Program-made: the position numbers and the translations under genes
Part shown: piece by piece, positions 43,844 through 58,201 of the stretch
How positions within the stretch are numbered: position 1 is the stretch's first letter
Layout of the letters: each line of letters opens with the position of its first letter
Notes under the pieces: model-generated
Seen by the model: the letters and a program-made list of their open reading frames with translations, nothing else
Databases searched by the model: none
What the model was told of the DNA's origin: nothing
Assembly: GCA_900314525.1 (NCBI GenBank)
Contig: OMVN01000026.1
Location: 1-58,684, forward strand
Direction: 5' to 3'
DNA: 58,684 nt
Source of the DNA: an uncultured Eubacteriales bacterium
GTDB taxonomy: Bacteria; Bacillota; Clostridia; Lachnospirales; Lachnospiraceae

Positions 43844-44922
43844 AATCTAACTGCGCTATTTTTTATTTTATCATTTTTCATCTTTAATAAAAGTAAGTGT
43901 ACCAGTCCAAATATCATTCCTGCCACCATTCCTGAAAAATGGGCTATGTAATCAATACTGCTTCCCTGCATCGAACCACCTGATCTTCCTGCATAAACCA
44001 GCATAATTACTACTATCAAGACATTTAAAGCCTTGGAATTTTTATCTTTATTTTGTCCAAGTATTAAAATTATTATTCCACCTAAAATTCCATAGATAGC
44101 ACCTGACGCTCCTACTGAGATTATCCTATTTCCATAGTGGATCCATGCTGAAACAAAACTTGATAACAGTCCTGTCACCAAATACATAATCAAATAGTTA
44201 AATCTTCCATATAACTTTTCTGCGCTCATTCCAAGCAAAAATAGTGCCACCATATTCCCAAATATATGCGATATTCCTGAATGAAGGAACATACAGGTAA
44301 ATAGTCTGTAGTACTCTCCAGAATCAAATATTAACGATGAATATGATGCCCCATGATCGACCATAAACATTATTTTTTGTGTTTCAGACATACCAATAGT
44401 CGATAACCATGTAATAATAAATATAAAAATGTTTATGCCCATTAACATAATTGTTACATATGGAACAAAATCCGATTTAGGAGCTCTTGTTCTCGCTCTT
44501 CTATTTCGAGAATTTCCGTAACTATAATTGTCTGAATTCAGTATATCATACTTTATACTGTCAAAATCATCTGGCTGATTCTCAAATACTATCAGTCTGT
44601 CTCCAATTTTATCAATAAGCCAGAAGTTAAATATATTATTATTATATACTTTATCCTTCTCTATATTATCACTAAAAATAATAAAAATTGTATCCACATT
44701 TTTATTTTCCACAAGAACAAATCTCTGCTGTATTCTGTTATAAACCGCATTAATCTGTTCAACAGATGGTGCATTTTGTGAACTTGAATCTGTAATTCCT
44801 ATTACTTTTACGGAATTACCATCTGGAAGATATCTGATATAAAATTCAATATTGATTACATTAGAAAATAAATTTGAATAACCTTTTCTCTTAAGTGTCG
44901 AAATAATACTGTCATGTGTCAA
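43840..44922 (-). CDS. Rhomboid-family intramembrane serine protease
   Basis: The 360-residue product has a cytoplasmic N-terminal domain of about 150 residues, then seven membrane helices. The catalytic Ser is in GASGAIYG, and the catalytic His is in DYIAHFSGMVAGMIFG. A HSGISHIFGNMVALFLLG stretch gives the conserved His/Asn of TM2. It cleaves transmembrane substrates, unknown here. The TTG start has AAGGGTGA seven bases upstream. Confidence 0.92.
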   Translation of the reverse strand: MTHDSIISTLKRKGYSNLFSNVINIEFYIRYLPDGNSVKVIGITDSSSQNAPSVEQINAVYNRIQQRFVLVENKNVDTIFIIFSDNIEKDKVYNNNIFNFWLIDKIGDRLIVFENQPDDFDSIKYDILNSDNYSYGNSRNRRARTRAPKSDFVPYVTIMLMGINIFIFIITWLSTIGMSETQKIMFMVDHGASYSSLIFDSGEYYRLFTCMFLHSGISHIFGNMVALFLLGMSAEKLYGRFNYLIMYLVTGLLSSFVSAWIHYGNRIISVGASGAIYGILGGIIILILGQNKDKNSKALNVLIVVIMLVYAGRSGGSMQGSSIDYIAHFSGMVAGMIFGLVHLLLLKMKNDKIKNSAVRF

Positions 44923-44946
44923 TTATACTTCACCCTTTCAAATGTT

Positions 44947-46119
44947 TTATCCAGCAAACATTTGTGACCAATAGTATACTCCTGAAACATTGACTGCCCC
45001 TACTCCTATTCTTGTATATGATGATTTAAGAATATTCTCTCTATGTCCTTCTGAATTCATCCAAGCATTAACTACTTCTTCCGGTGTTCTCTGTCCATAG
45101 GCAATATTTTCACCACATGTTCTATAAGATATTCCATTTTCACTTAATACTGTAAAACAATTTTTTCCATTTGGTCTAGTGTGTGAAAAATTAGAAACGA
45201 TCTCATTTGCCCTAATCTCTGCAACATTACATAACGATGAATCCTTTACCAATGATGGAAGATTATATTTAGCTCTCTCAACATTTACCAATCTGATTAC
45301 CTCATCAACATAACTGGTATTAGACTGCTTATTGTCTTCTTTTATGTCATTATTGTCTTCACTAACTTCCTTTTCAACAATCTGAACAGAATCATTGTTA
45401 TTATTTGATATTATATTATTACCTGGACACAAATAAATATATTTTCTAACACCATTACATGAGTTGTTAATAATACTATTTGAATTGTCACAATTGTTTC
45501 TAGAGATTATAGCATTATTTCCAAAGATAGTACAAGTATTTGTTTCACTCTCCTTTATTTTAATATTATTATTTTTAGTTTCAGCTTTATTACCTGTGTC
45601 ATTACTTATATTGTCATTACATTTATATTCAGCATTTTGCTCATTAATATTTGCAGTTTCTGAATCATGAATCTGAATATTCTGGGCATTACATTTATTG
45701 TCGTTCTTAACATCAATTTGTGTATTTGTAGTCTCCTCACTTAATGTATCATCCTCATTTTTTATCTGTTCTGTCTCTTTTGTGTCTGTTATGCAATTGT
45801 TTTCATTTGACAAAATAGACTCTTCCGAAGCCTTTTCTTCAGTCTTATTCGCTGCTTCATTTTTTATCTCAGTATTGTATGGATTTTTTTCTGTTTCACA
45901 GGTTACTGTTTCCTCTGGAACAGCTATTACCTGATTATTTCTGTCACAATTTGATTTATCAATAACTACTCCACAATTTTTGTCAGCATTATTATTTACT
46001 GGTTTTATAAATCCAAAATCACATGCCATACATACTGTAGAAACAAGCAGTACCCCGCTCAATCCTGCCACAACGATATAACGTTTCTTATTCTTAAACA
46101 GATTTTTTAATATACTCAT
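44947..46119 (-). CDS. CAP-domain (SCP-like) exported protein
   Basis: The 390-residue product starts at the ATG at 46117-46119 (GGAAGGAG upstream). A signal anchor (about residues 13-33) is followed by a long low-complexity Asn/Glu/Thr/Lys-rich linker with scattered Cys (about 40-265). A C-terminal CAP domain follows (about 268-390: LVNVERAKYNLPSL, FSHTRPNGKNCFTV, GENIAYGQRTPEEVVNAWMNSEGHRENIL, GVYYWSQMF). The domain binds lipids or acts in wall biology in other bacteria. The linker has many N-x-[DS] motifs and is likely exposed outside. It is the last gene of the tad block on this strand. Confidence 0.88.
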   Translation of the reverse strand: MSILKNLFKNKKRYIVVAGLSGVLLVSTVCMACDFGFIKPVNNNADKNCGVVIDKSNCDRNNQVIAVPEETVTCETEKNPYNTEIKNEAANKTEEKASEESILSNENNCITDTKETEQIKNEDDTLSEETTNTQIDVKNDNKCNAQNIQIHDSETANINEQNAEYKCNDNISNDTGNKAETKNNNIKIKESETNTCTIFGNNAIISRNNCDNSNSIINNSCNGVRKYIYLCPGNNIISNNNNDSVQIVEKEVSEDNNDIKEDNKQSNTSYVDEVIRLVNVERAKYNLPSLVKDSSLCNVAEIRANEIVSNFSHTRPNGKNCFTVLSENGISYRTCGENIAYGQRTPEEVVNAWMNSEGHRENILKSSYTRIGVGAVNVSGVYYWSQMFAG

Positions 46120-46238
46120 AAATATGTTTCTCCTTCCCATGTATAAAGTTTTGATATGTCCTCTACACTCAGAGTTTAACATTTCTATATGTATAAATAA
46201 TAGCTGTAAATACTGGATTTTTTTCATAATAATGTTAA

Positions 46239-46958
46239 TTAAAAGCCTCTCAGAACTCTTGTCATTTTATTGAAGAAATTAGGTTTTTCATTTTCTTTTG
46301 AATCAGTTATATCACACTCCATATCACTATATATATTTTCATTTTCAGATACTTTCTCAAACTCTTCGTATTCTAAATCATAATTTTTTTCTGTTACATC
46401 AGAATCACTATATTCCTCTGTCCCCTTTAATTCCAGATTGCTTAAAACATCTTCTATCTGATCTATATAATAGTCATCACTATCACAAACATTTAAGACT
46501 CCATATATCAATTCTACGGCTTTCCTATCTGTATGATCAGTAATCAATATTATTTCCTGAATTAATTTTCGTATATCACTATGAGCATCTCTACCATCAT
46601 CAGGATAATAACAAAAATATATCTCATCATCCAAACTGTCATAGAATATATATTCCATATCAAATATAATATCATCAGATTTTAACAAAAATTTTTTTAC
46701 TCTGCTGCATATTCCTGTTATACTTTTAATTATCTTATTTATTTCCTTATATCCTGCCTTTTTATTTTTATATAACTCCTGCAGACTATGTTTTGACATT
46801 ACTTCATATGATATATCTGCATTTCCATCAACCAGACTGATATACAAATTTAGAAGTCCCTTGATTTGGTTTTTAATTATCATATTTATTCTATAGTCAT
46901 TAGCACACAAAGAATTCTGTCTCATTGTAATATATTTTTCATTTTGTAATACCTCCAC
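46239..46958 (-). CDS. DUF6382-type protein of the tad locus, no FHA domain
   Basis: The 239-residue product starts at a GTG with GGGGGTG seven bases upstream. The N-terminal 190 residues resemble the DUF6382 domain found in tad loci of Lachnospiraceae (YITMRQNSL, INMIIKNQIKGLLNLYISLVDG, YIFYDSLDDEIYFCYYP). There it is normally fused to a C-terminal FHA domain. Here the acidic tail ends FFNKMTRVLRGF with no FHA, so it is a shortened form. The domain assignment is by memory of the family and moderately sure. Confidence 0.6.
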   Translation of the reverse strand: MEVLQNEKYITMRQNSLCANDYRINMIIKNQIKGLLNLYISLVDGNADISYEVMSKHSLQELYKNKKAGYKEINKIIKSITGICSRVKKFLLKSDDIIFDMEYIFYDSLDDEIYFCYYPDDGRDAHSDIRKLIQEIILITDHTDRKAVELIYGVLNVCDSDDYYIDQIEDVLSNLELKGTEEYSDSDVTEKNYDLEYEEFEKVSENENIYSDMECDITDSKENEKPNFFNKMTRVLRGF

Positions 46959-46974
46959 TTATTTACACCCCCAA

Positions 46975-47382
46975 TTATTTTTCCTTTATTCTAATTATTG
47001 TATCTGCCACAACTTTTTCCTTAATTATAAATTTGTGATTATCTAGTTGATATTTTTTTACTTTAATAACATCATCTCTTGATATATTAAAAAAACCTTG
47101 GCTATATCCTATCTTAGCTATAATTTCACACTCTTCTTCGCCATTACCTACAACAACATCCCTTGGTTTTGCTACAATTACACTGCTGCAGATTTCATTA
47201 TAAATTTCATTTTTTATTTCATCTGTTCCCTTTCCATAAATATCATATTTATATAAAACTGCTCTTATGGATACTAAATCAGATAGATAAAATGAACACA
47301 TAATCATTGTGGCTATTATGACTATTATTATTGGAAAAATTAGTGACATTTCTATTGTTATATTTCCCTCATACTTTTTTAT
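46975..47382 (-). CDS. TadE-like pseudopilin (AUA start suspected)
   Basis: About 135 residues: a short basic leader and a type IVb-pilin-like helix (YEGNITIEMSLIFPIIIVIIATMI), with Glu at position +5 after the Gly. The rest is a small extracellular domain. The frame has an ATG far upstream (47520), but that lies deep in the peptidase gene. At the natural place the only good initiation signal is AAAAGGGG seven bases before an ATA at 47380-47382, giving M-K-K-Y. An in-frame TTG at 47400 has no ribosome site. It follows the prepilin peptidase. Confidence 0.75.
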   Translation of the reverse strand: MKKYEGNITIEMSLIFPIIIVIIATMIMCSFYLSDLVSIRAVLYKYDIYGKGTDEIKNEIYNEICSSVIVAKPRDVVVGNGEEECEIIAKIGYSQGFFNISRDDVIKVKKYQLDNHKFIIKEKVVADTIIRIKEK

Positions 47383-47420
47383 ATCAATTCCCCTTTTCAA
47401 CAAATATCTAAAACAGGATA

Positions 47421-47843
47421 TTAAACAAATTTTATTATGATAAATGACAGTAAAATAAATGGTACAAAAGGCAATCTGGTCTTTAAACTTTTTCTTAATA
47501 TAATTAATATAGGCGTGCATATCACCAAAACAAGAATGAAAGCAATCAATAGTATTCTTGTTACTTTCAAAATACCTACCATAGTACCAATAACTGCTAT
47601 AATTATTCCGTCTCCTTTTCCTATCTGTCCATTAAATAAAATACTTGATAGATATATTAAAGCCCCTGGTATAAGCCCCAAAATAATATATAGAAAATTA
47701 AATCGATTTAGAAATATTAAAATAAAAATATATATCAATTCGGTTACTATACATACAAAAAAATTTATATGTCTTGTTCTTAAATCTTCATAACTGCATA
47801 TAAATAAAAAAAGCAGCAAAATCAAATCTTCTATTATATCCAT
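47421..47843 (-). CDS. Prepilin peptidase, TadV/CpaA-like
   Basis: The 140-residue product starts at the ATG at 47841-47843 with GGAGG six bases upstream. It is an A24-type prepilin peptidase in short (TadV) form, with about five membrane helices. The two catalytic aspartates are in SYEDLRTRHI (about residue 18) and the GKGDG motif (about residue 75). It trims the leaders of Flp and pseudopilins in this locus. Confidence 0.88.
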   Translation of the reverse strand: MDIIEDLILLLFLFICSYEDLRTRHINFFVCIVTELIYIFILIFLNRFNFLYIILGLIPGALIYLSSILFNGQIGKGDGIIIAVIGTMVGILKVTRILLIAFILVLVICTPILIILRKSLKTRLPFVPFILLSFIIIKFV

Positions 47844-47845
47844 TA

Positions 47846-48655
47846 TTATCCTCCACACTTACTACATTTGGTCCTGTCCCCAACATCCCTTATATCTATA
47901 CCAATAATATTACGCTCTAATTTATTACAATCTATGTTTCCATGATACCTCCTTCCATCTTTAGTAATATATACATACTCATTCTCGTCTTTCTGCCCGC
48001 TTATGCATGATTCACATGGATAGTATTTTGCCCCGCTATTATTCCTATATCTGTCTATTTCTCCAAAAGATACACTTTCTATATTTCTTTTTATATATGT
48101 GCAATTCTTATCTAAATGGTAAACTTTTCCTGTTCTTGTAATATAAACAGTTTGTCTCTTGCTTTTTGATGATTCTTTAAGACTCTCTCCAACCCAGGAT
48201 TTAAAATAACTCCTATTTGCCATATTCATTGGATATTTATATCCAAAAAAATTATAAAGTGCAATATATGAAACTTTAATATCATTTACTCCTTCTCCAT
48301 TTTTATCAATTACTGATTCTAAGATATTTAAAACAGGAGAATTGACTTGTGATTCTTTCATGCACTTATTAACCTCATTATCCTGTATATTCTTGAGTAC
48401 ATATGCAATTGTAATCCCGCTAGTTAATATTTCCTTGTCCTGCTCACCTACAAGATTCTCAAATTCCTGAGACTTGAATTTCTCAACTATGTACTGATAC
48501 CTTGAAACTTTTTGAGATGCAAAAAATATTTTATCCTGAATAACATTGTTACAATTTATCAGAATAAATAATTTTAACAGACATAATATTGCCATAGTAA
48601 ATATTGGCAAAATAAGCGATGCCTCTAATGTAATTACTGCTTCATCCCTTTTTAT
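47846..48655 (-). CDS. TadE-like pseudopilin with tandem Cys-motif C terminus (AUA start suspected)
   Basis: With the ATA at 48653-48655 as start (GGGAG eight bases upstream) the product has 269 residues: K-R-D-E-A-V-I-T-L-E-A-S then a hydrophobic helix (pilin-like), an extracellular domain, and two tandem copies of a Cys module at the C terminus. These are VYITRTGKVYHLDKNCTY...YPCESC and YVYITKDGRRYHGNIDCN...TKCSKC. Each keeps YH, one Cys and a CxxC and could bind zinc. The frame is open up to an ATG at 48757 that has its own ribosome-like site, but this ATG lies inside a long inverted repeat. Confidence 0.75.
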   Translation of the reverse strand: MKRDEAVITLEASLILPIFTMAILCLLKLFILINCNNVIQDKIFFASQKVSRYQYIVEKFKSQEFENLVGEQDKEILTSGITIAYVLKNIQDNEVNKCMKESQVNSPVLNILESVIDKNGEGVNDIKVSYIALYNFFGYKYPMNMANRSYFKSWVGESLKESSKSKRQTVYITRTGKVYHLDKNCTYIKRNIESVSFGEIDRYRNNSGAKYYPCESCISGQKDENEYVYITKDGRRYHGNIDCNKLERNIIGIDIRDVGDRTKCSKCGG

Positions 48656-48672
48656 ACTAATCGCTCCCTTTT

Positions 48673-48774
48673 CATGGAAGATCGTTAAAATGTACCATAA
48701 AATGTCAGGCTTGCAAACTATCGGGAGAAGAATAAGCTTATTTGTAATATGGTACATTTTAATGATCCCCCATG
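48673..48774. repeat. 27-bp inverted repeat (MITE-like hairpin)
   Basis: Arms 48673-48699 and 48748-48774 are complementary at 24 of 27 positions and enclose 48 bp. The core 20-bp arms (48680-48699 and 48748-48767) have one mismatch. It sits between two tad genes, 18 bp before the start region of the downstream gene. There is no T-tract on the minus strand. Confidence 0.85.
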
Positions 48775-48779
48775 CTTTT

Positions 48780-50849
48780 CTAGTATTTGAAATTGTCTAT
48801 AACTTTAAAATCGAAATTGTCTTCCTTGAAAAAAATAATATTTTTAACAAATCCCAGTCCTGAAAATATTCTCTTACTTTCAAAATGTGATTCAACTGAT
48901 ATTCCCAAAATACAATCTTTTATATTAAAATTACTGTTATATTTTTTCTGCATATCTATCTGTATTAAATCAAGTATTCTATATACTGTTTCCTGTCTGC
49001 TATTCATTAGCAATAAACATCTCAAGTAATTTTCATAATTCAAACCCGGTCTGTCTTTTTTTGACTCCTCATCTCCTGATTTTAGCCCTGATGCATTTTC
49101 GAGAGACAGATTCCAATTTTCTTCAGTTTTCATTACCTGAACCTTATATCCATCTAATAAATCTTTCACATCAACAACTGACTCTGCAAATGCCCATGCA
49201 CCCATAATAAGAAGCCATGTTACTCTTATTACCACGGGTAATCCTGTAAATCCCGTTGTAAGTAATGCAAGATCATATGCTTCCTGTCTCTTTGCATTAT
49301 CACCTAATAGAAATAAAAGATTAAGTCCTTCCCTTATTAACAACAATTTATCAATTATCACATCTTCGTTTTCTCTATCTGAATACTTTCCGCTTATTAT
49401 GTACTCCAATTGATATTTTAGACTATCTAAACCATCATCGGTGTATGAATCAAATTTATCTAATACATACTGTGAAATAAGAACTTTTCTCTTAAGAATA
49501 GTAGTTTCATCATATTGTGTCCAATCTGCCCCACCGTTCAATGATTTATCTCCTGATGGCAATGAATTTATATCTTCAATTTTTCCATCAGATAGTCCTC
49601 CCGATACTATATAATTTATTATGCCATCTTTTCTTATCTTGTCAGTAAAGTCAATAATATCTACAGTATTATTATTTTCTTCATCTTCCTGTGTTGAAAA
49701 AGAATTATATAGTTTATTAATATCAAAATTCATAATACTAATATTTGCCTTATTTACACAGTTTTCCATTCTTTCAAAAAATTGACCTGTATCATCATAA
49801 ACAGACAATGCATATGCAAATTGCGCAATATCCTCCATATCTTTTCTTATGTCACTCATATCTGCTGAAACTTGTGAAATGATCATTTTCTGATTATTTA
49901 ATTCTTCCCTATTTTCACTTATGTGGAATAAATTTCCATCCAAACCGCTAATTTCATTATTCATATCTTCAATTTCTGCTGCAATTGCATTATAGCTCTC
50001 AGGAACCATTTCACTTTTTTTCTGATCTAATTTGATTTTAACGCTATTTATTTTCTCTTTTGCACTTTCTATATTTTTTTCATAATTTTGAATGTTATCC
50101 AGCGAATCATCATAATATCTCTGAATTTTTAAAGTATATTCTATATAATTTTTATATTCTACTTTAAATTCATCAAATTTTTTATCTTTTTCTTCAATAC
50201 TATTTTCATCATATGATTTTATCTCATTTATAATTCCAGTCATATTATTTAATATATCCCTGGGATTATATTGATAATTCTTTATTCCATCTATATTCGT
50301 CTTTAATTCCGTTGCATTATTATTTGCATCAATTATATTTTTTCTGCACTCACTTAATTCTTCATCAAAATTATCTACATCTTTTCCTGAATTAACTGCT
50401 TTATATTCATCTATTATTTTGTTAATAACATCATCAGCTATTTCATATTTCATATATTCACAGATTTGCTTTTCTATTAATTCACCCTCATAATCGAGTG
50501 CACATGTTTTATATAAAATTGATGTTCCTGTATATTTTAATGACATGAAATCCGCAACAGGAAGTCTAAAACCCCCCTTTAAATCACAATTATTTTTAGC
50601 ATAGTTGTCATACAGATCCATAAATTCATTATCATCTTTCCACAGTAGCATTATCCCATAATCATCAAAGACCTCTCTTGCATATGATGCAAAACATGAA
50701 TCAATGGATAGCTTTGATATCTGACTGGATCTGTATGATAAACTATAACTCCTTGCATATTCTAAAGATGTAAGTACTATTGAAAAAACCAGAATAATAA
50801 TTAATGTAAGAAAAACTGTAATAACGCCCTGACTGTTTTTTGTTTTTAT
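48780..50849 (-). CDS. DUF5702-type large pseudopilin (AUA start suspected)
   Basis: The largest tad protein, 689 residues from an ATA at 50847-50849. N terminus: K-T-K-N-S-Q-G-V-I-T-V-F then a membrane helix (LTLIIILVFSIVLTSLEYA), as in TadE/TadG-type minor pilins. A long helical extracellular region follows (many Asp/Asn/Glu, coiled-coil stretches at about 150-330), then a hydrophobic segment with AFAESVVDVKDLLDGY near residue 585, and a C-terminal NYLRCLLLMNS region typical of DUF5702. The in-frame stop at 50865-50867 leaves only TGT-GAG-GTA-ATA-AAA-ATA before it, so no ATG/GTG/TTG start exists before the helix. GAGG is 8 bases before the chosen ATA. The first ATG (50651) would remove the pilin helix. 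Confidence 0.8.
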   Translation of the reverse strand: MKTKNSQGVITVFLTLIIILVFSIVLTSLEYARSYSLSYRSSQISKLSIDSCFASYAREVFDDYGIMLLWKDDNEFMDLYDNYAKNNCDLKGGFRLPVADFMSLKYTGTSILYKTCALDYEGELIEKQICEYMKYEIADDVINKIIDEYKAVNSGKDVDNFDEELSECRKNIIDANNNATELKTNIDGIKNYQYNPRDILNNMTGIINEIKSYDENSIEEKDKKFDEFKVEYKNYIEYTLKIQRYYDDSLDNIQNYEKNIESAKEKINSVKIKLDQKKSEMVPESYNAIAAEIEDMNNEISGLDGNLFHISENREELNNQKMIISQVSADMSDIRKDMEDIAQFAYALSVYDDTGQFFERMENCVNKANISIMNFDINKLYNSFSTQEDEENNNTVDIIDFTDKIRKDGIINYIVSGGLSDGKIEDINSLPSGDKSLNGGADWTQYDETTILKRKVLISQYVLDKFDSYTDDGLDSLKYQLEYIISGKYSDRENEDVIIDKLLLIREGLNLLFLLGDNAKRQEAYDLALLTTGFTGLPVVIRVTWLLIMGAWAFAESVVDVKDLLDGYKVQVMKTEENWNLSLENASGLKSGDEESKKDRPGLNYENYLRCLLLMNSRQETVYRILDLIQIDMQKKYNSNFNIKDCILGISVESHFESKRIFSGLGFVKNIIFFKEDNFDFKVIDNFKY

Positions 50850-50864
50850 TTTTATTACCTCACA

Positions 50865-51080
50865 TTAAAATGTACTTATTTTTGATGCCAATTTGACAAA
50901 TACATTATTTACAATTGTCGTAATCTGCGTTCTAAAAATCATAACAAGTCCAACCAGTACAACTATTATAAGAATAACTTCAATTACTCCCATTCCCCTG
51001 TTGTCTTCAGCCAAATTACTAGTTATAATCTTCCCTTTAATTTTGTTGATTAAATCCTTTACTCTATTTACAATCCCCAT
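50865..51080 (-). CDS. Flp-type type IVb pilin
   Basis: The 71-residue product has a basic leader (about residues 1-30) ending in GMG and the mature N terminus VIEVILIIVVLVGLVMIF, with the conserved Glu. This is the major pilin of the tad machine. The ATG has GGAAAGGGG upstream. Its stop codon is followed in the same frame by the DUF5702 gene. Confidence 0.88.
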   Translation of the reverse strand: MGIVNRVKDLINKIKGKIITSNLAEDNRGMGVIEVILIIVVLVGLVMIFRTQITTIVNNVFVKLASKISTF

Positions 51081-51133
51081 ATTATCCCCTTTCCTTTCAT
51101 TAAATAATTTGATTGATTATAAAAATTATTAAT

Positions 51134-52570
51134 CTATAAGTTGAATGATAAAATAGCTGGAACCATAATTATTATCATAGAAATTACAAGCATAATTATC
51201 ATCGGAATTAATAACTTTGTTCCTGCTTTATCTCCCCTTTTTCTTGCTGTTTTCTTTCTGATTTCAAATGCTTCCTTTATTTCGTCATCAAGCACATTTT
51301 TTAATCCCTTTGTTCCCTTTTTTATATTTTGTTCTAGCAAATTTGAAAATTTAATATATGTATGTAGTCCACATCTTCTGCCAAATTCCAAATATGCTTG
51401 TCCTTCTGAGTACCCCATTTTCATCTTTTGTCTGGCATATTTCATCTCTTCATACAATATACTATTATCTGTATTTTTCTTTTCAAAATCCCTAATTATC
51501 TTATCCCACGCGCTTAAAATGCTCATACCAGAATTTTGTAAAATTGTAATTTTATATACAAGACCTGCATATTCTGCTTCTAATATTTCCCTTCTTTTTT
51601 CTATTTTTTCATCTGTCTTCTTTCCAATTAAAATAAATATAATAATGCCTGTTACAAATGCAAATATTATAAAAATCCAAGACTTATTTTCATTTTTTAT
51701 ATAAAAATTTACTTTATATTTTTTAGAAATATCATTTAAATTGACCTCTTCTCTCTGACTATCTGTATTATTTTTTTTATTTACTATATCAAGAATATTT
51801 TTATAGTAATCCCTTTTTTCCTTGTTTAAAATCAAATCAAATTCAATTTCCTTTTTATAACCTGAAAGTAGTAAAATTGCCCTGACCTTTACTTCCTTAT
51901 TTTCATCAATTTCTTCCCAGTTTATTTTTCCTGAATAATTAATACACTGACTATCACAATTCCACTCAACTGATACTCCATTCTCAAGCGAACTCACTAG
52001 ATTTATATCATCTGTTATATTATCTAAACTCTTATTTTTCCCTAGAATCAACTTATTTAGCTTTCTTTCGCTCTCACCAAATATCTTTTCTGCCTCTTCT
52101 TTTGTATAGTCCTTTTCTTTTATATCAATATTTACATTTTCTGATTTATTTCCGTGCTTAATTATTAGATCATAATTTTTGCTTATACTTCCACTTTCTG
52201 GCCTTTTTAAACTGCTTATCTTCTTGTTATCTGTCAGTAGTTCTTTTATACAATTTAAGTATCCTATAAATAAAATTAATAGAAATATCAGTAAGGAAAA
52301 AGACAATCTTCTAATCAGGTATAAATATGCTTGATTTCTGTTTATACTGCCTAATTTTAACTGATTCAATTTATTTATAATGTTTTCATATCTAATTTTA
52401 TGAATTGTATTATCTATAAAATCTAATATTCTGGCACTGGGAGAATATAAAAATTTCAGTCTGTGATTCTTAAAATCTAATTTGCTGAAATTATTTTTTT
52501 TGTATTTTCTAGTTAAAATCAGAACTATTATGGTTATCAAAACTATAATTGTATATATTGTAAAAAACAA
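51134..52570 (-). CDS. tadC: TadC-like inner-membrane platform protein
   Basis: The 478-residue product has an N-terminal membrane helix, another around residues 90-105, an extended charged domain (about 120-300), and a C-terminal T2SSF domain (about 330-478: QNSGMSILSAWDKIIRDF, EMKYARQKMKMGYSEGQAY, and the last two helices). The pair with the TadB-like gene upstream is the standard platform of a tad pilus. The large middle domain is longer than in typical TadC. The TTG start has GGGGG upstream. Confidence 0.82.
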   Translation of the reverse strand: MFFTIYTIIVLITIIVLILTRKYKKNNFSKLDFKNHRLKFLYSPSARILDFIDNTIHKIRYENIINKLNQLKLGSINRNQAYLYLIRRLSFSLLIFLLILFIGYLNCIKELLTDNKKISSLKRPESGSISKNYDLIIKHGNKSENVNIDIKEKDYTKEEAEKIFGESERKLNKLILGKNKSLDNITDDINLVSSLENGVSVEWNCDSQCINYSGKINWEEIDENKEVKVRAILLLSGYKKEIEFDLILNKEKRDYYKNILDIVNKKNNTDSQREEVNLNDISKKYKVNFYIKNENKSWIFIIFAFVTGIIIFILIGKKTDEKIEKRREILEAEYAGLVYKITILQNSGMSILSAWDKIIRDFEKKNTDNSILYEEMKYARQKMKMGYSEGQAYLEFGRRCGLHTYIKFSNLLEQNIKKGTKGLKNVLDDEIKEAFEIRKKTARKRGDKAGTKLLIPMIIMLVISMIIIMVPAILSFNL

Positions 52571-52582
52571 TTATCATCCCCC

Positions 52583-53329
52583 TTATACACTAATATTTGT
52601 AATTTTTTCCCCAATAATGAAGGCAACTGTATATAATAATAAACATATTGTCATTATTAATTTTCCAATCAGTGTATTATACATAACGCTCATCATATTC
52701 CCTGAAGTAAAATTAACATATAATATCATTATTAGTGGAACAATATCCATAATTCTCTGCTCATATTTTTTTGAATTAATTATTGTTTCTATTTCTCTTT
52801 CCACTTCTATTTTCTGACATATTGAATCTGCTGCATTCTTTACAATTTCAATGATATTTCCACCACTTCTCTTTGCAATATTAATTACATCAGAAAATAA
52901 TATGATTTCCTCAATCTGACACCGGTTTCCAAAATCTTCAAAACAGTTTTCAATATTCATATTCAGTTTGATTCGCTTGCAGATTATCATTAATTCTCTG
53001 CAAATATCTGAATCTTTATCATATAATTTAACCATTTCTTTGTAACATTCACCAATTGAATTCTCTAATGAATAACCAGCCAATAATTGAGAACATAAGG
53101 ACAAACAAAATTCCTTAAATTGTATTTTCAGCATTTTTATTCTACTTTTTATAATCATATTTTTTATAATACGAAAATATATTTTTACTGGTATTATAAA
53201 TATAATAAAAGCTATTATGCTTTTGAAAAAAGTATATGAAAAAGCAATATCAATAATTAAAATATAAAATGCGTATTTTACATATTCATATCTGCTAAAT
53301 CTATACTCACTATATTTTATTGTTTCCGT
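52583..53329 (-). CDS. tadB: TadB-like platform protein (ACG start suspected)
   Basis: The T2SSF core (about residues 60-190: FKEFCLSLCSQLLAGYSLENSIGECYKEMVKLY, IAKRSGGNIIEIVKNAADSI) and C-terminal helices are clear. The frame extends upstream of the first ATG (53158) through an expected N-terminal membrane segment (Y-V-K-Y-A-F-Y-I-L-I-I-D-I-A-F...). There is no ATG/GTG/TTG before it. A perfect AGGAGG lies nine bases before ACG (53327-53329), so the product has 248 residues if ACG initiates. It overlaps the end of tadA by 20 bp. Confidence 0.8.
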   Translation of the reverse strand, partial: TETIKYSEYRFSRYEYVKYAFYILIIDIAFSYTFFKSIIAFIIFIIPVKIYFRIIKNMIIKSRIKMLKIQFKEFCLSLCSQLLAGYSLENSIGECYKEMVKLYDKDSDICRELMIICKRIKLNMNIENCFEDFGNRCQIEEIILFSDVINIAKRSGGNIIEIVKNAADSICQKIEVEREIETIINSKKYEQRIMDIVPLIMILYVNFTSGNMMSVMYNTLIGKLIMTICLLLYTVAFIIGEKITNISV

Positions 53330-54551
53330 AAATTTCTGCCTCCTTAAACAACCCGTTATTAATTAATTTCTGAGTATTCCTAAGACCATTTTTTGTCCAG
53401 GTAAGTTTTCCGTTGACCTTTATGTTTTCACATCCTTTTTCTTCATCAAATTCATATAACTTGTTAAGAATAAAATCATCATTTTGTATCCCTATAATTT
53501 CAACTATCTCTATAACTTTCCTTGTCCTATCTCTAAGTCTTCCCAGTTGCACAAGGATATCAATTCCTGATGCAATTTGACTTCTAACTGCAGAAATTGG
53601 AATTTCCATTCCCATTAATATCATTGTTTCAAGTCTTGACAACATATCTCTTGGACTGTTTGCATGACCTGTACTAAGGCTTCCATCATGTCCTGTATTC
53701 ATAGCCTGTAGCATATCTATTGCTTCAGGTCCTCTGACCTCACCTACAACTATTCTGTCTGGTCTCATTCTAAGGCTGGATTTTATTAAATCCCTTATCG
53801 TTACCGCATTTTCCCCTTCAATATTCGCTTCCCTTGCCTCTAATTTGACTATATTTTCAATATTTTGTAGTTGTAATTCCGCAGAATCTTCAATTGTTAT
53901 TATTCTCTCCGTGTTTGGAATAAAATTTGACAATGCATTTAAAAATGTTGTTTTTCCTGATCCTGTGCCCCCACTAATAAATATATTGTAACCAGAAACC
54001 ACCAGTACTCTTAAAAACTCTGCAGCTTCTTTTGTTATAGAATTTATCTCTATTAGTTTATCAATTGTAATTCTTTCTTTTGGAAATCTCCTTATTGTAA
54101 GTATAGGACCATTAATTGCAACTGGTTTTAATACAACATTTACTCTAGATCCATCTTTTAATCTGCTGTCGACAATTGGTGTTGATTCATTTACCCTCCT
54201 ATTTACAAATGACACAATCTGCTGTATTACATCTTCAAGTCTTTCAAGTGATGAGAATTTTCCATCATATTTACATATAATCCCCTGCTTCTCATAAAAA
54301 ATATTGTCTGGACCATTAATCATTATTTCAGTAATATCTGCATCTGAAATAATTTCCTCCAAAATATCCAGACCCCTTATTGAATCAAATATTTCCCTTC
54401 TAAGTTTATTTTTTTTGTTAATTGAAAATATTTTATATTTTGTGTACTCTAAAATTTCTTCATCAATAATTTCATAAATACTGCTATCTTCAATATCATC
54501 ATTGAGATTTATTCTGTTAATTACTTTTTCTCTTAGTTCTCTAACACAATA
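53310..54551 (-). CDS. tadA: TadA-like secretion ATPase, start undefined
   Basis: The ORF encodes a CpaF/TadA ATPase with Walker A SGGTGSGKTTFLNA, the TIEDSAELQL Asp box, RMRPDRIVVGEVRGPEAIDML (Walker B) and GHDGSLSTGHANSPRDML (His box). Translated from the first TTG (54362) it lacks the conserved N-terminal domain, which is nevertheless present in the same frame (R-E-K-V-I-N-R-I-N-L and R-R-E-I-F-D-S-I-R-G-L-D). The frame runs directly from the tadZ stop codon (54552-54554) with no ATG/GTG/TTG. One missing A after GTGTTA (54545) would restore a GTG start. I give the whole open frame. Confidence 0.85.
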   Translation of the reverse strand, partial: YCVRELREKVINRINLNDDIEDSSIYEIIDEEILEYTKYKIFSINKKNKLRREIFDSIRGLDILEEIISDADITEIMINGPDNIFYEKQGIICKYDGKFSSLERLEDVIQQIVSFVNRRVNESTPIVDSRLKDGSRVNVVLKPVAINGPILTIRRFPKERITIDKLIEINSITKEAAEFLRVLVVSGYNIFISGGTGSGKTTFLNALSNFIPNTERIITIEDSAELQLQNIENIVKLEAREANIEGENAVTIRDLIKSSLRMRPDRIVVGEVRGPEAIDMLQAMNTGHDGSLSTGHANSPRDMLSRLETMILMGMEIPISAVRSQIASGIDILVQLGRLRDRTRKVIEIVEIIGIQNDDFILNKLYEFDEEKGCENIKVNGKLTWTKNGLRNTQKLINNGLFKEAEIYGNNKI

Positions 54552-55541
54552 TTAATCACCCCTTATTTTAGAATCTAATTCATCTGTAATAAAAGATAAA
54601 TTCTCTCCTTCTTCCATATCTGAGTTTTCAATTAAATACTCCCTAATATTATCTATTTCATATTCGGACTGATTGCTTATATAGTTTATAAGCTTATCCT
54701 TTTTTATCTTCCAGTACTTATCATTTTCATAGGGGATTATTGATTCAAATGATTCAGCAATTATCCTTAAATAATCCTGAACTATACTGGACAGACTGAT
54801 AATTATAACATTGTAATTTCTCATTTCACCAATCTTTTTAATTAATCTTATAATATACTCTGTATCAATATTTCTCAAATCACTTCCACATTTTACAGCT
54901 GGAATATATTCCAATCCATTGTAATATCCTATTATGGATTCTATTTTTAATGAAAGTGCTTCATTCTGAGTCATAGATAAATAAATAATATCTGAAAAAT
55001 TTCCAGAAGTATTTCCCATTATATAATTGTCAAGAACAGAAAATTCCTTCAAATCAATATACAATATTCTATATCCTTTTTTAGCCAAACAAACCCCCAT
55101 TTTCACTGGCCATATTTCTGTCCTCAGGCTATCTATCGGTGTAAAAATACTAATTATCCTAGTTTCATTTTTTCTTATATACCTTAATTTCTTATTAACT
55201 AATATACTTCTGTTAATACATTCCTCGATAATTTGATTTATCAATTCTTCTACCTGCTGATATCTATATACTGATTTTACTCCTGAAATACTATCAACAT
55301 TTTCCTCATCAGTCATAACCATGATTTTATTTAATCCATATCTATTTATAAAATCACAAGACAAAAGATTCTCTCCAATTACAATCATGTCTGTATCTTC
55401 ACTGTTTTCATAAAATGTCTCTAATGATGAGAAGAAATATATGATATATTCTTCTTTTCTCTTTCCTAATAGATAATCTCTGAAATTTTCAATATAATAA
55501 TTATCGTCATATATCAGTGCAATATTAAGTCGTTTTTTCAT
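54552..55541 (-). CDS. TadZ/CpaE-like atypical ATPase
   Basis: The 329-residue product has an N-terminal receiver-like domain (about residues 1-110: IALIYDDNYYIENFRDYLLGK, DMIVIGENLL) and a MinD-like half. The deviant Walker A is degenerate: the strand ISIFTPIDSLRTEIW has no GKT, and the VIIISLSSIVQDYLRII part aligns with the Walker B region. TadZ/CpaE proteins place the pilus machine at the pole or a focus. The ATG has AGGAG upstream. Probably the first gene of the tad operon. Confidence 0.75.
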   Translation of the reverse strand: MKKRLNIALIYDDNYYIENFRDYLLGKRKEEYIIYFFSSLETFYENSEDTDMIVIGENLLSCDFINRYGLNKIMVMTDEENVDSISGVKSVYRYQQVEELINQIIEECINRSILVNKKLRYIRKNETRIISIFTPIDSLRTEIWPVKMGVCLAKKGYRILYIDLKEFSVLDNYIMGNTSGNFSDIIYLSMTQNEALSLKIESIIGYYNGLEYIPAVKCGSDLRNIDTEYIIRLIKKIGEMRNYNVIIISLSSIVQDYLRIIAESFESIIPYENDKYWKIKKDKLINYISNQSEYEIDNIREYLIENSDMEEGENLSFITDELDSKIRGD

Positions 55542-55704
55542 TCATATTATATTTCTCCTTTCTTTACTTTTTGTTTTTGTGATGTTACATCAGTATATAA
55601 CATGAGATTCAATTTGTAAAGTACTTTTTGGAATAAAATTACAGATTTCTGTTTATACTTAATATGAATACATTTTTTCATAATTAGCATATGAGGTGAT
55701 TTAT

Positions 55705-55947
55705 TTGTTTAAAAAAAAGAATAAACTTTCTAATAGGGAATTATTAGAGGATTTTCGATGCTATCTTTCAGAGGAAGAACTGCTAAGGCTGGAAATAGAG
55801 GAAACTAAACTTGCTTTAGATGCGGCTTATTCTGTATGGCAGAACATAACTGAACCAGAACTTATTGACAGTGTAATTTATGAATTAAATTCCATTCAGT
55901 CAAAATATACTTTTCTGACAAAAAAATACAGAGAAATATCAGCGTAA
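55705..55947 (+). CDS. DUF2508 (YaaL-like) protein
   Basis: The 80-residue product starts at a TTG with GAGG eight bases upstream; the in-frame GTG three codons earlier overlaps that site. It has the DUF2508 pattern of a helical, charged protein: EEELLRLEIEETKLALDAAYSVWQN and an end like YTFLTKKYREI. In Bacillus the family member YaaL is near recR and bofA; here it is alone between the tad operon and the GH13-like gene. Confidence 0.75.
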   Translation: MFKKKNKLSNRELLEDFRCYLSEEELLRLEIEETKLALDAAYSVWQNITEPELIDSVIYELNSIQSKYTFLTKKYREISA

Positions 55948-55948
55948 A

Positions 55949-56045
55949 AAAATGACATCATCTGAAATGTAAATAATATGTTGTATCATTACTGGATATA
56001 TCCAGTAATGATGATGCATACATAACACTCAGATGATGTCATTTT
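55949..56045. terminator. Nested bidirectional hairpin
   Basis: The outer 17-bp stem is 55949-55965 with 56029-56045 (A4 at one end, T5 at the other). A separate inner 11-bp stem is 55986-55996 with 56001-56011. The outer stem begins directly at both stop codons, so it can end both convergent transcripts. Confidence 0.75.
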
Positions 56046-57739
56046 TATATTTCCTTCAAATAATAAAATCCTCTTCCAGGGACGACCGTCTTATTTATAT
56101 CTATCTTATTTCCCGTCATGAGATCTTCATATTCACTTTTGTTTTTTAATAACATAACTTTTTTATCATGTTCACTAAAGTTAAATAATCCTATAATCGT
56201 CTTCTCATTATATTTTCTCTCAATACCTATTATACTGTTATCACATGTATCAATTGTTTTAAAATCTGCAATATAATCAAATTCTTTATTGTTTCCCCTT
56301 ATATTTATTAGTTTTGCAAAATTTCTCATTAATTTTCCTTCAATTGTATTTTCATCAACAGCAAAAAATCTATCATTTTCTTTACTAATTTCGCCATTGT
56401 AATTATTAATTTTACCTATTTCATCACCACTTTTAATACATGGAACCCCTTTTAAAATAAATAAAAATGCATATAACATAGTAATGAAATCAACAGATTT
56501 TTCTATTTCACATTCATTCATTTCATTTATAGCCTTTTCCAATCCGCACATTGAAGAAGTAGTGCTTATTGTCCCGAAATTTCCATCATTTAGTTCTATG
56601 CTGCGTGCTCTGCTGTTACTGTATCCAGTTTTACCTTCAAAATATCTTTTCAGATAAATTTTATGCAGTTCTTCATTTATTCCATATTTTTTTAAAAAAC
56701 TATAATTCAATTTCCAGATTACTGGATTATTATCTAATATATAATTGAAAGCTGATATTTCTTTTTTACGTTCTATCTCATTTCTTAAAAGTTTTATATT
56801 TCTTGTGGCAACTGCATTCCAAATCACTTGTGTAAAATTATTATTTAACTGTATGTCGCACTCTTTTGTTTGTTTATCGTAATTACAGTAATCTGATTTA
56901 TTCTTTACTAATAAAATAACAGATGGAGCAGCAATTTCCAAAATTATTTTTATCATTCTCAGTATTCTATGGTAATCTGAATTAGTTTTATTTATTTCGA
57001 TTTCTTCTGGATTTTTTAAAATAATTCCATCTATTCCAAAATTTACGATATTAAGAATATCCGATATAATTCTATTAAACACCCTCGGATTATTATAGTT
57101 AAGTTCCCACATATTCTTATCAGGAGCAGTTCTTACATAGTTATTTTCATCTAACTTTAAATACGTTTTATGTATTTTACTAATTGAAATGTTATTATCA
57201 ATGATTTTGTCTTCATCATAGAAATAATACATATTTCTATATTCATTATCTCCTTGCCTTGCTCTATACGCACTTTCACTATTAGAATCGTCGTACTTTA
57301 TCTCATATTCAGTTAATATACTGATACCCTTTTTTTGATATTCTGATAATAAATTTTCCAGTCTATTATTTTTCAATGGTTGATATGAATGTATCTTATT
57401 ACTGTCTTTATAAAAATATTTCATATCAATTTTTGTTATTATCATATTAATATTTAAATTTAAAATATACTCATTTAACTCTTCTAATTCTTCATATTCT
57501 GTACTATCAAAAATAATTCCAATATTTTCTTTGTTTAGGAACCAATCGGGATTTATTTCTCGTTTTATATCTAGATTAATTAATTCTTTATTCCTATTGT
57601 CATAATAATTTTTTATATTAGAACATAATTCATATAACATTGACTCATTCTGATACAATTCTATATATAACCATTTTAATTCATCAAATTTCTTTTCAAA
57701 TCTTCTGCTGTATATTGCATCATAATACTCCTTATTCAT
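56045..57739 (-). CDS. GH13 amylosucrase-like protein without catalytic residues
   Basis: The 564-residue product follows the GH13_4 (amylosucrase-type) family along its length: the N-terminal FDELKWLYIELYQNE helix, DIKREINPDWF, RAPDKNMWELNYNNPRVFNRI, VIWNAVATRNIKLLRNE, STTSSMCGLEKAINE, and LKGVPCIKSGDEIGK. The catalytic motifs are all lost. Region II GIDGIILKN (235-243) has Ile240 for the Arg and Lys242 for the nucleophile Asp; region III VILLVKNKSDY has Asn280 for the acid Glu; region IV NYILDNNPV has Asn337 and Asn338 for the HD pair; region I also lacks DxxxNH. It is intact and AT-rich, so it is not an obvious decaying pseudogene. The function is unknown. Confidence 0.85.
   Translation of the reverse strand: MNKEYYDAIYSRRFEKKFDELKWLYIELYQNESMLYELCSNIKNYYDNRNKELINLDIKREINPDWFLNKENIGIIFDSTEYEELEELNEYILNLNINMIITKIDMKYFYKDSNKIHSYQPLKNNRLENLLSEYQKKGISILTEYEIKYDDSNSESAYRARQGDNEYRNMYYFYDEDKIIDNNISISKIHKTYLKLDENNYVRTAPDKNMWELNYNNPRVFNRIISDILNIVNFGIDGIILKNPEEIEINKTNSDYHRILRMIKIILEIAAPSVILLVKNKSDYCNYDKQTKECDIQLNNNFTQVIWNAVATRNIKLLRNEIERKKEISAFNYILDNNPVIWKLNYSFLKKYGINEELHKIYLKRYFEGKTGYSNSRARSIELNDGNFGTISTTSSMCGLEKAINEMNECEIEKSVDFITMLYAFLFILKGVPCIKSGDEIGKINNYNGEISKENDRFFAVDENTIEGKLMRNFAKLINIRGNNKEFDYIADFKTIDTCDNSIIGIERKYNEKTIIGLFNFSEHDKKVMLLKNKSEYEDLMTGNKIDINKTVVPGRGFYYLKEI

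Positions 57740-58127: not shown

Positions 58128-58201
<74 letters not shown>

What the first reader, a model, noticed from the sequence alone, without database searches (positions are those of the whole stretch)
46975..50849. Three pseudopilin genes in the tad locus seem to start at AUA
The TadE-like (47382), TadE-like with Cys modules (48655) and DUF5702 (50849) genes share one pattern: a purine-rich Shine-Dalgarno (AAAAGGGG, GGGAG, GAGG) 7-8 nt before an in-frame ATA-AAA, followed at the expected distance by the pilin-type motif G/A-x-I-T-[LIV]-[EF]. For DUF5702 this is forced: only TGT GAG GTA ATA AAA ATA lies between the in-frame stop (50865-50867) and the motif. AUA initiation is very rare in bacteria. 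Three in one operon suggest deliberate low-level translation of minor pilins, or a change in initiation in this lineage.
Basis: partly seen in the sequence, partly recalled or inferred. Interest (0 to 1): 0.72.

Follow-up and report, generated by a model that had tools for sequence, protein, structure and literature searches.

The report
Pilus operon with weak start codons
In a group of gut and rumen bacteria, several genes for building one kind of pilus seem to begin at codons that ribosomes start from only poorly, as if the bacterium were holding production of the pilus machine down at the first step of translation.

Summary
DUF5702 has no ATG/GTG/TTG between the upstream stop and its core, so a non-canonical start is forced. 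TadE1 (ATA after AAAAGGGG) is likely but not forced. TadE2 is doubtful: ATG 48757 has its own Shine-Dalgarno (SD), though both lie in a 27-nt hairpin arm.

cpaF and tadB of the window also lack canonical starts: 3 of 10 tad genes here, 8 of 98 over ten Lachnospiraceae genomes. Of 336 other genes of this genome, 5 remain without a well-placed canonical start; 2 of these are broken genes and 3 unresolved.

The strongest evidence is conservation. tadB has AGGAGG-N9-ACG in six of six clade members, where a synonymous change in overlapping cpaF would give ATG, as in G001. tadZ has an out-of-frame ATG at the best SD distance in all six.

The initiator tRNA is ordinary and nearly all other genes start canonically, so changed initiation rules are not supported. 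Most likely: selected weak initiation of the tad machine, possibly IF3-sensitive. Sequence evidence only; where cpaF starts is unresolved.

The parts
54552..55541 (-). tadZ; in-frame ATG at 55541, 12 nt (aligned) from its SD
   Evidence: (weak TadZ receiver hit, E 0.0079, below Pfam's cut-off)
55525..55545 (-). out-of-frame mini-ORF ATG AAT GAA AAA ACG ACT TAA overlapping the tadZ start; its ATG is at the optimal SD distance (8)
   Evidence: out-of-frame ATG at spacing 7-9 in six of six clade genomes
55555..55561 (-). SD AAAGGAG of tadZ / mini-ORF
53310..54551 (-). cpaF open frame (ATPase); no ATG/GTG/TTG in frame before the conserved LREKV
   Evidence: (T2SSE E 3.2e-58)
54555..54562 (-). extended SD GGGGTGAT before cpaF, dG -15.1
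54545..54549 (-). out-of-frame TTG (54549) and GTG (54547) at SD spacing 9 and 11, open for 2 and 4 codons
52583..53329 (-). tadB, best candidate start ACG 53329-53327
53339..53345 (-). SD AAGGAGG of tadB, spacing 9, dG -14.0
51134..52570 (-). tadC, TTG start, SD AAGGGGG spacing 7
   Evidence: (T2SSF E 3.2e-06)
50865..51080 (-). Flp pilin, ATG start
   Evidence: (Flp1_like E 2.3e-19)
48780..50849 (-). DUF5702 pseudopilin-like gene; non-canonical start forced, best candidate ATA 50849-50847
50857..50861 (-). SD GAGGT of DUF5702, spacing 8
48673..48774 (-). 27-nt inverted repeat (89% complementary) that buries ATG 48757 and its SD GGGGG (48771-48767)
   Evidence: (z -2.38); no second full copy in the genome
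47846..48655 (-). TadE-like gene with Cys modules; ATA 48655 (SD AAGGGAG 48670-48664) or ATG 48757
47421..47843 (-). prepilin peptidase (A24), ATG start
   Evidence: (E 3.3e-10)
46975..47382 (-). TadE-like gene; ATA 47382 (SD AAAGGGG 47396-47390), or TTG 47403/47400 without SD
   Evidence: (TadE E 0.063, below cut-off)
46239..46958 (-). DUF6382 gene, GTG start
   Evidence: (E 1.3e-41)
58128..58201 (-). initiator tRNA, ordinary (CAU anticodon, C1:A72, GGG/CCC anticodon stem)
   Evidence: the defining marks of an initiator tRNA are recalled

Best explanation
Several genes of this tad (Flp pilus) operon start translation at near-cognate codons placed 6-9 nt after a strong SD: ACG for tadB, AUA for DUF5702 and probably TadE1, AUU or ACG in relatives. 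tadZ and cpaF carry out-of-frame start codons that compete for the same SD. The SD recruits the 30S subunit, ordinary fMet-tRNA pairs imperfectly with the codon, and IF3 rejects most complexes, so little protein is made. In the window Flp and the prepilin peptidase have AUG. The operon is thus held at low output of assembly parts by selection on initiation. Shown: missing canonical codons, SDs, conservation of tadB ACG and of the tadZ competitor. Inferred: where ribosomes start, how weakly, and IF3 dependence.
For: tadB: AGGAGG-N9-ACG-GA in six of six clade genomes; G004 was looked for after the pattern was seen in the other five. G001, outside the clade, has ATG at that SD distance because the matching Tyr codon of overlapping cpaF is TAT there and TAC in the six; TAC is 8-20% of Tyr codons, product 3.2e-6, or 3.1e-5 without G009 (assumes independence). 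tadZ: out-of-frame ATG at spacing 7-9 in six of six; five of six meet the exact rule used for controls, 0 of 324 controls do. No canonical start before the core: 3 of 10 tad genes in the window, 8 of 98 in ten genomes, against 5 of 336 other genes of this genome (Fisher 0.0009 and 0.0025; against the uncurated 12 of 336, 0.007 and 0.095). infC AUU in ten of ten. Separate cases: cpaF ACG in L144, tadB ATC in L078. Precedent: S. aureus AUA/AUU starts give about 10%, up to 30%, of AUG (PMC13009471, passages).
Against: No expression data. cpaF of the window and of G007 has no AUN, ACG or CUG codon in frame before the core, so this mechanism does not explain it; a TTG at 54362 has an SD (-10.3, spacing 9) but starting there would drop some 60 residues that relatives have. 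In five of the six clade genomes tadB has an in-frame ATG, GTG or TTG further upstream, dG 0 to -7.6. The ACG lies 5-6 codons before the tadB core but the ATG of G001 13 codons before, so the two match by SD and cpaF Tyr, not by the tadB protein. G002 has ACG GAG at the aligned tadB place behind an ATG, so Thr-Glu may partly be a protein motif. The contrast with other genes is moderate, not overwhelming. Some clade members use ATG for genes that are AUA in the window.
Confidence: 0.6

Rival explanations
1. Ribosomes do not start de novo at these codons. Genes are reached by coupling: ribosomes ending the upstream gene or a mini-ORF back up or move on and restart, tolerating odd codons.
For: tadZ mini-ORFs stop within 15 nt past the tadZ start in six of six. 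cpaF has TTG/GTG mini-ORFs in G000, G007 and G009. Genes abut or overlap. E. coli narQ depends on such termination-reinitiation (PMC9841429, passages).
Against: Strong SDs at normal spacing precede the near-cognate codons, which restart near a stop would not need. tadB ACG is conserved exactly relative to the SD.
Confidence: 0.21
2. Relaxed selection: the tad locus is decaying and start codons are being lost.
For: Several start codons gone in one operon; DUF6382 frame is 239 aa here against 388-494 aa in the other members of the genus.
Against: The frames are intact, 2 kb in DUF5702, across genus members 30-41% identical to the window. tadB ACG is kept although the favoured synonymous codon would restore ATG.
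Confidence: 0.08
3. Stop readthrough makes fusions: tadZ-cpaF and Flp-DUF5702 are in the same frame with one stop between them.
For: Both pairs are in frame in the window; tadZ-cpaF also in G007 and G009.
Against: The stop is TAA here and TGA in G007/G009; tadB is in another frame than cpaF; G006 DUF5702 overlaps Flp in another frame (coordinates).
Confidence: 0.05
4. Sequencing or assembly error.
For: The relatives are metagenome or uncultured-genome assemblies by their titles.
Against: Independent genomes show the same codons; tadB ACG in six of six.
Confidence: 0.02

Closest known systems
S. aureus infC (AUA), ccpN (AUA), cvfC1 (AUU), citZ (AUA, only in the NCTC 8325 lineage) (PMC13009471, passages read)
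   Same: near-cognate starts with extended SDs, lowering output to about 10%, up to 30%, of AUG in reporters; cvfC1 and ccpN conserved in relatives
   Different: single genes spread over the genome, mapped by experiment; here several genes of one operon, with ACG as well, no experiment
infC (AUU) and pcnB (AUU) of E. coli (titles in the reference lists of PMC2268962 and PMC13009471)
   Same: non-canonical starts discriminated by IF3; the window's own infC has AUU
   Different: autoregulation or a single enzyme, not a multi-gene machine
Ambiguous start sites: AUGUG/GUGUG in E. coli, narQ, Thermus rnpA-rpmH AUGGAUG (PMC9841429, passages)
   Same: one SD, two overlapping start codons in different frames; tadZ here is ATGNATG in five of six
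   Different: here the competing frame closes after 3-6 codons and the pair heads a pilus operon
tad/Flp pilus loci of Lachnospiraceae
   Same: tadZ, cpaF, tadB, tadC, Flp, DUF5702, TadE-like, A24 peptidase, DUF6382 in order
   Different: loci of other genera nearly always have canonical cpaF, tadB and DUF5702 starts

Membership tests
tad (Flp) pilus locus | CpaF-type ATPase, TadB/TadC platform, Flp pilin, A24 peptidase in one locus | tested here: met
   T2SSE 3.2e-58, T2SSF 3.2e-06, Flp1_like 2.3e-19, Peptidase_A24 3.3e-10; TadB was not scanned with Pfam, named by position and by conservation
TadE family (Pfam PF07811) | score above Pfam's gathering cut-off | tested here: not met
   13.9 bits against 22.9 for TadE1; no TadE hit for TadE2
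near-cognate-start genes (infC/ccpN type) | no canonical start codon in frame before the conserved protein | tested here: met
   met for DUF5702, TadB, CpaF in the window; not met for TadE1 and TadE2
near-cognate-start genes (infC/ccpN type) | strong SD at normal spacing | tested here: met
   dG -9.9 to -14.0, spacing 6-9; infC -15.3, spacing 9
near-cognate-start genes (infC/ccpN type) | near-cognate codon conserved in relatives | tested here: inconclusive
   met for tadB ACG, six of six; not met for DUF5702 AUA: ATA or ACG in G006, but ATG in G005 and G009, GTG in G007, TTG in G004
near-cognate-start genes (infC/ccpN type) | lower output than AUG and IF3 dependence | not testable with these tools
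   needs reporters or ribosome profiling
ambiguous start sites | two overlapping starts in different frames sharing one SD | tested here: met
   tadZ in five of six clade genomes; in G004 the in-frame ATG lies 10 nt on, beyond the SD's reach; 0 of 324 controls
ambiguous start sites | termination-reinitiation or competition shown | not testable with these tools
   no expression data
altered initiator tRNA or initiation rules | changed initiator tRNA or genome-wide non-canonical starts | tested here: not met
   30 of the 43 tRNA hits came as loci for ARAGORN and a few more lay in larger stretches; not all 43 were read. About 375 kb plus the window sampled, not the whole genome

The most novel reading that the evidence does not exclude
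The tad operon is a translational regulon of IF3: weak start codons in tadB, pseudopilin genes and, in relatives, cpaF and tadC, plus competing starts at tadZ and cpaF, make assembly of the whole pilus follow the IF3-to-ribosome ratio, which infC sets through its own AUU start.
Probability: 0.25. Interest if true: 0.82.

Novelty: new variant of a known kind. Interest (0 to 1): 0.6.

Why it matters
Near-cognate starts in bacteria are known gene by gene. A multi-protein machine whose parts are repeatedly given weak or competing starts, with one (ACG) kept across six species although a synonymous change would make AUG, would be a new way of setting the stoichiometry or timing of a pilus. Annotation rules that allow only ATG/GTG/TTG would truncate or miss these genes (inference). 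Simple reporters can test it.

Tried and rejected
Viral contigs with TadC: no relative. Hairpin at 48673-48774 as a repeated element: no second full copy in the genome, only short partial matches, no inverted repeats at the four of them examined; no Rfam family near a cut-off in 44000-56500. Change of genetic code or initiator tRNA: rejected. A-to-I or C-to-U editing of start codons: considered from general knowledge only, not tested. Readthrough fusions: not conserved. Literature: searches listed no paper on non-canonical starts in tad loci; the library is open-access only, I saw listings, and one search listed 15 of 174 papers. Hecht et al. 2017 (E. coli, 64 start codons) is not held and is not used.

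Script errors put right: duplex energies came out as zero, redone with a stacking table; the TadB row used a wrong core column, redone; alignment had the wrong strand for G004, redone.

The fair base is 336 genes. Of the 12 without a canonical codon in the scanned part, six have an ATG with a good SD a little further on, and a seventh is ribosomal protein S20 with a TTG start just before its domain. Five remain: L099:7723 (symporter cut by a stop) and L096:7494 (CotH piece behind an in-frame stop) are broken; L086:2235, L096:8496 and L099:30 (near a contig end) are unresolved. Confidence was lowered from 0.62 to 0.60 for this, and two rivals raised by 0.01. The decoy control does use the 324; it looks 9 nt upstream only, which G004 (10 nt) would not pass.

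Dropped before counts: genes whose 5' end runs off a stretch, and in controls coding scores under 60. The 116 loci include members of the genus and some second loci of one genome.
Full report
Observation. On the minus strand of 46239-55541 lies a tad (Flp pilus) locus: tadZ, cpaF, tadB, tadC, Flp, DUF5702, a TadE-like gene with Cys modules, a prepilin peptidase, a second TadE-like gene and DUF6382. The TadE1 claim is likely but not forced: TTG TTG at 47403/47400 are in frame but have no SD, ATG 47520 has an SD-like stretch but lies inside the peptidase gene, and ATA 47382 follows AAAGGGG. The TadE2 claim is the weakest: ATG 48757 has SD GGGGG at spacing 9, and orthologues have leaders of 15-77 residues before the motif by their best-SD start; but that ATG and its SD form the 5' arm of a 27-nt inverted repeat, so which start is used is open.

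cpaF and tadB also lack canonical starts in the window. tadB has AAGGAGG, nine bases, then ACG (53329). cpaF has the extended SD GGGGTGAT followed by TAT TGT GTT AGA in frame and by TTG and GTG out of frame. A TTG at 54362 has an SD (dG -10.3), but starting there would remove some 60 residues that relatives share.

Is it the whole genome? I sampled 20 stretches (about 375 kb) plus the window: 397 gene calls, 386 with a closed 5' end. Three of the five with the longest coding stretch before a canonical codon are DUF5702, cpaF and tadB. Starts called: 307 ATG, 32 TTG, 25 GTG of 364. As a control I took the 336 non-tad genes with coding score 60 or more and asked for a canonical codon from 15 codons before to 20 after the coding onset. 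Twelve had none. Six of these have an ATG with a good SD shortly after (dG -9.5 to -15.3), and one is ribosomal protein S20 with TTG (dG -16.8) just before its Pfam domain. Five remain: two are broken genes (Na:Ala symporter; CotH), three are unresolved. Against these, 3 of 10 tad genes in the window differ with Fisher p 0.0009 (0.007 against the uncurated 12), and 8 of 98 over ten genomes with 0.0025 (0.095). The two rules are not identical: for tad genes the limit is the conserved core, for controls a coding score. In a G007 sample 6 of 108 genes lacked a canonical codon in the scanned part and by the listed codons one stays unexplained, an EndoU-domain piece near a contig start; in a G006 sample the 1 of 36 is a broken UDP-galactopyranose mutase gene. 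The initiator tRNA is ordinary. infC has ATT nine bases after GGAGG in ten of ten genomes of the genus; in six of them a GTG or TTG also lies in frame further upstream.

Relatives. The genus has ten held genomes, nine with DUF5702. A tree of nine tad proteins, full length and thus including the genes in question, with only part of them for G002, G003 and G004, groups G005, G006, G000, G004, G007 and G009 (bootstrap 96), with G001, G002 and G003 outside. Of 98 tad genes (ten families in nine genus members and the outgroup G023; two not found) eight have no canonical start before the core as aligned: cpaF, tadB and DUF5702 in G000; cpaF in G007; tadC, DUF5702 and TadE2 in G006; cpaF in G003. Best near-cognates there: ATT for G006 tadC and TadE2, ATA or ACG for G006 DUF5702, ATT or ATA for G003 cpaF, none convincing for cpaF of G000 and G007. 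In G004 cpaF an ACG follows AAGGAGG at spacing 7 (dG -14.0); a GTG nine codons upstream scores -6.6 and an ATA further up -14.4.

tadB. All six clade genomes have AGGAGG, nine bases, ACG GA. For G004, whose tadB was on another contig, this was found after the pattern had been seen in the other five. The ACG sits on a Tyr codon TAC of overlapping cpaF; TAT would make ATG, and G001 has that: AGGAGG, nine bases, ATG. TAC is 8-20% of Tyr codons (five genomes counted over tad genes; G004 over its longer minus-strand frames), so six of six by chance is about 3e-6 if independent, 3e-5 without G009, the close relative of G007. Against: five of the six have an in-frame ATG, GTG or TTG further upstream with dG 0 to -7.6, against -14 for ACG; the start is 5-6 codons from the core in the clade and 13 in G001; and G002 has ACG GAG at the aligned place with an ATG before it.

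tadZ. In six of six clade genomes an out-of-frame ATG stands 7-9 bases after the SD and opens 3-6 codons. The in-frame ATG follows 4 bases later in five (aligned spacing 11-13) and 10 later in G004, beyond the SD. None of 324 control genes has an out-of-frame ATG at spacing 5-10 within 9 nt of a start at spacing 11 or more; five of the six tadZ meet that same rule. The control takes for each gene the start with the best SD, which favours well-spaced starts. Among 65 tadZ genes of fetched Lachnospiraceae loci nine have an out-of-frame ATG near the start: four from the clade and five with ATGTGA, an AUG-stop over a GTG. Ambiguous sites are known: narQ in E. coli rises 7-8 fold when the competition is removed, and Thermus rnpA-rpmH has AUGGAUG (PMC9841429, passages).

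Elsewhere in the family (116 loci, some of the genus, some from one genome). cpaF: no canonical start in 2 of 91, namely G007 itself and L144 with GGGAGG, eight bases, ACG. DUF5702: 1 of 85, which is G006. tadB: 2 of 96 (L180, L192, not followed up), and five with a weak canonical but strongly SD-placed near-cognate, four of them the clade's ACG and one ATC in L078. The phenomenon is thus concentrated in this genus, with a few possible separate cases.

Mechanism. A strong SD with a near-cognate codon is the arrangement reported in S. aureus to give about 10%, up to 30%, of AUG output (PMC13009471, passages). High IF3 represses non-canonical starts in E. coli (stated with citations in PMC2268962, passages). 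I infer that tad assembly parts are initiated weakly and may follow IF3 level; Flp and the peptidase, with AUG in the window, are not limited this way. Whether the purpose is stoichiometry or timing is open. cpaF of G000 and G007 remains unexplained: restart after a mini-ORF, slippage or readthrough are possible, none shown.

Novelty. Single near-cognate starts and ambiguous start sites are known. Several in one operon, with a conserved ACG and a conserved competing start at the first gene, I did not find in print (listings of searches, open-access library only).

Noticed in passing
window 48673-48774: 27-nt inverted repeat with a 48-nt loop between DUF5702 and TadE2; stem holds ATG 48757 and its SD; no second full copy in the genome.
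   Followed up: partly
window 46239-46958: DUF6382 frame is 239 aa here but 388-494 aa in the other members of the genus.
   Followed up: no
L204, L173, L205, L208, L210: tadZ of other Lachnospiraceae starts as ATGTGA: an AUG-stop at a good SD distance overlapping an in-frame GTG.
   Followed up: partly
L144: cpaF of a Lachnospiraceae MAG (isolate name Lapin-007) has no canonical start; GGGAGG, eight bases, ACG GAC.
   Followed up: no
L078: tadB with a very strong SD (dG -20.8) followed by ATC GAC TAC where several others have ATG or GTG before GAY TAY.
   Followed up: no
L180, L192: tadB frames without a canonical start before the aligned core in two other Lachnospiraceae.
   Followed up: no
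window 54551-54554 and 50864-50867: tadZ-cpaF and Flp-DUF5702 are each in the same frame, separated by one stop codon.
   Followed up: partly
L099:7411-8421: Na:alanine symporter gene interrupted by an in-frame stop in the window's genome.
   Followed up: no
L232 (G004:C127): cpaF of G004 has a repetitive charged N-terminus (EKLKAEKIKAEELRTEKL...) not seen in the other cpaF printed.
   Followed up: no
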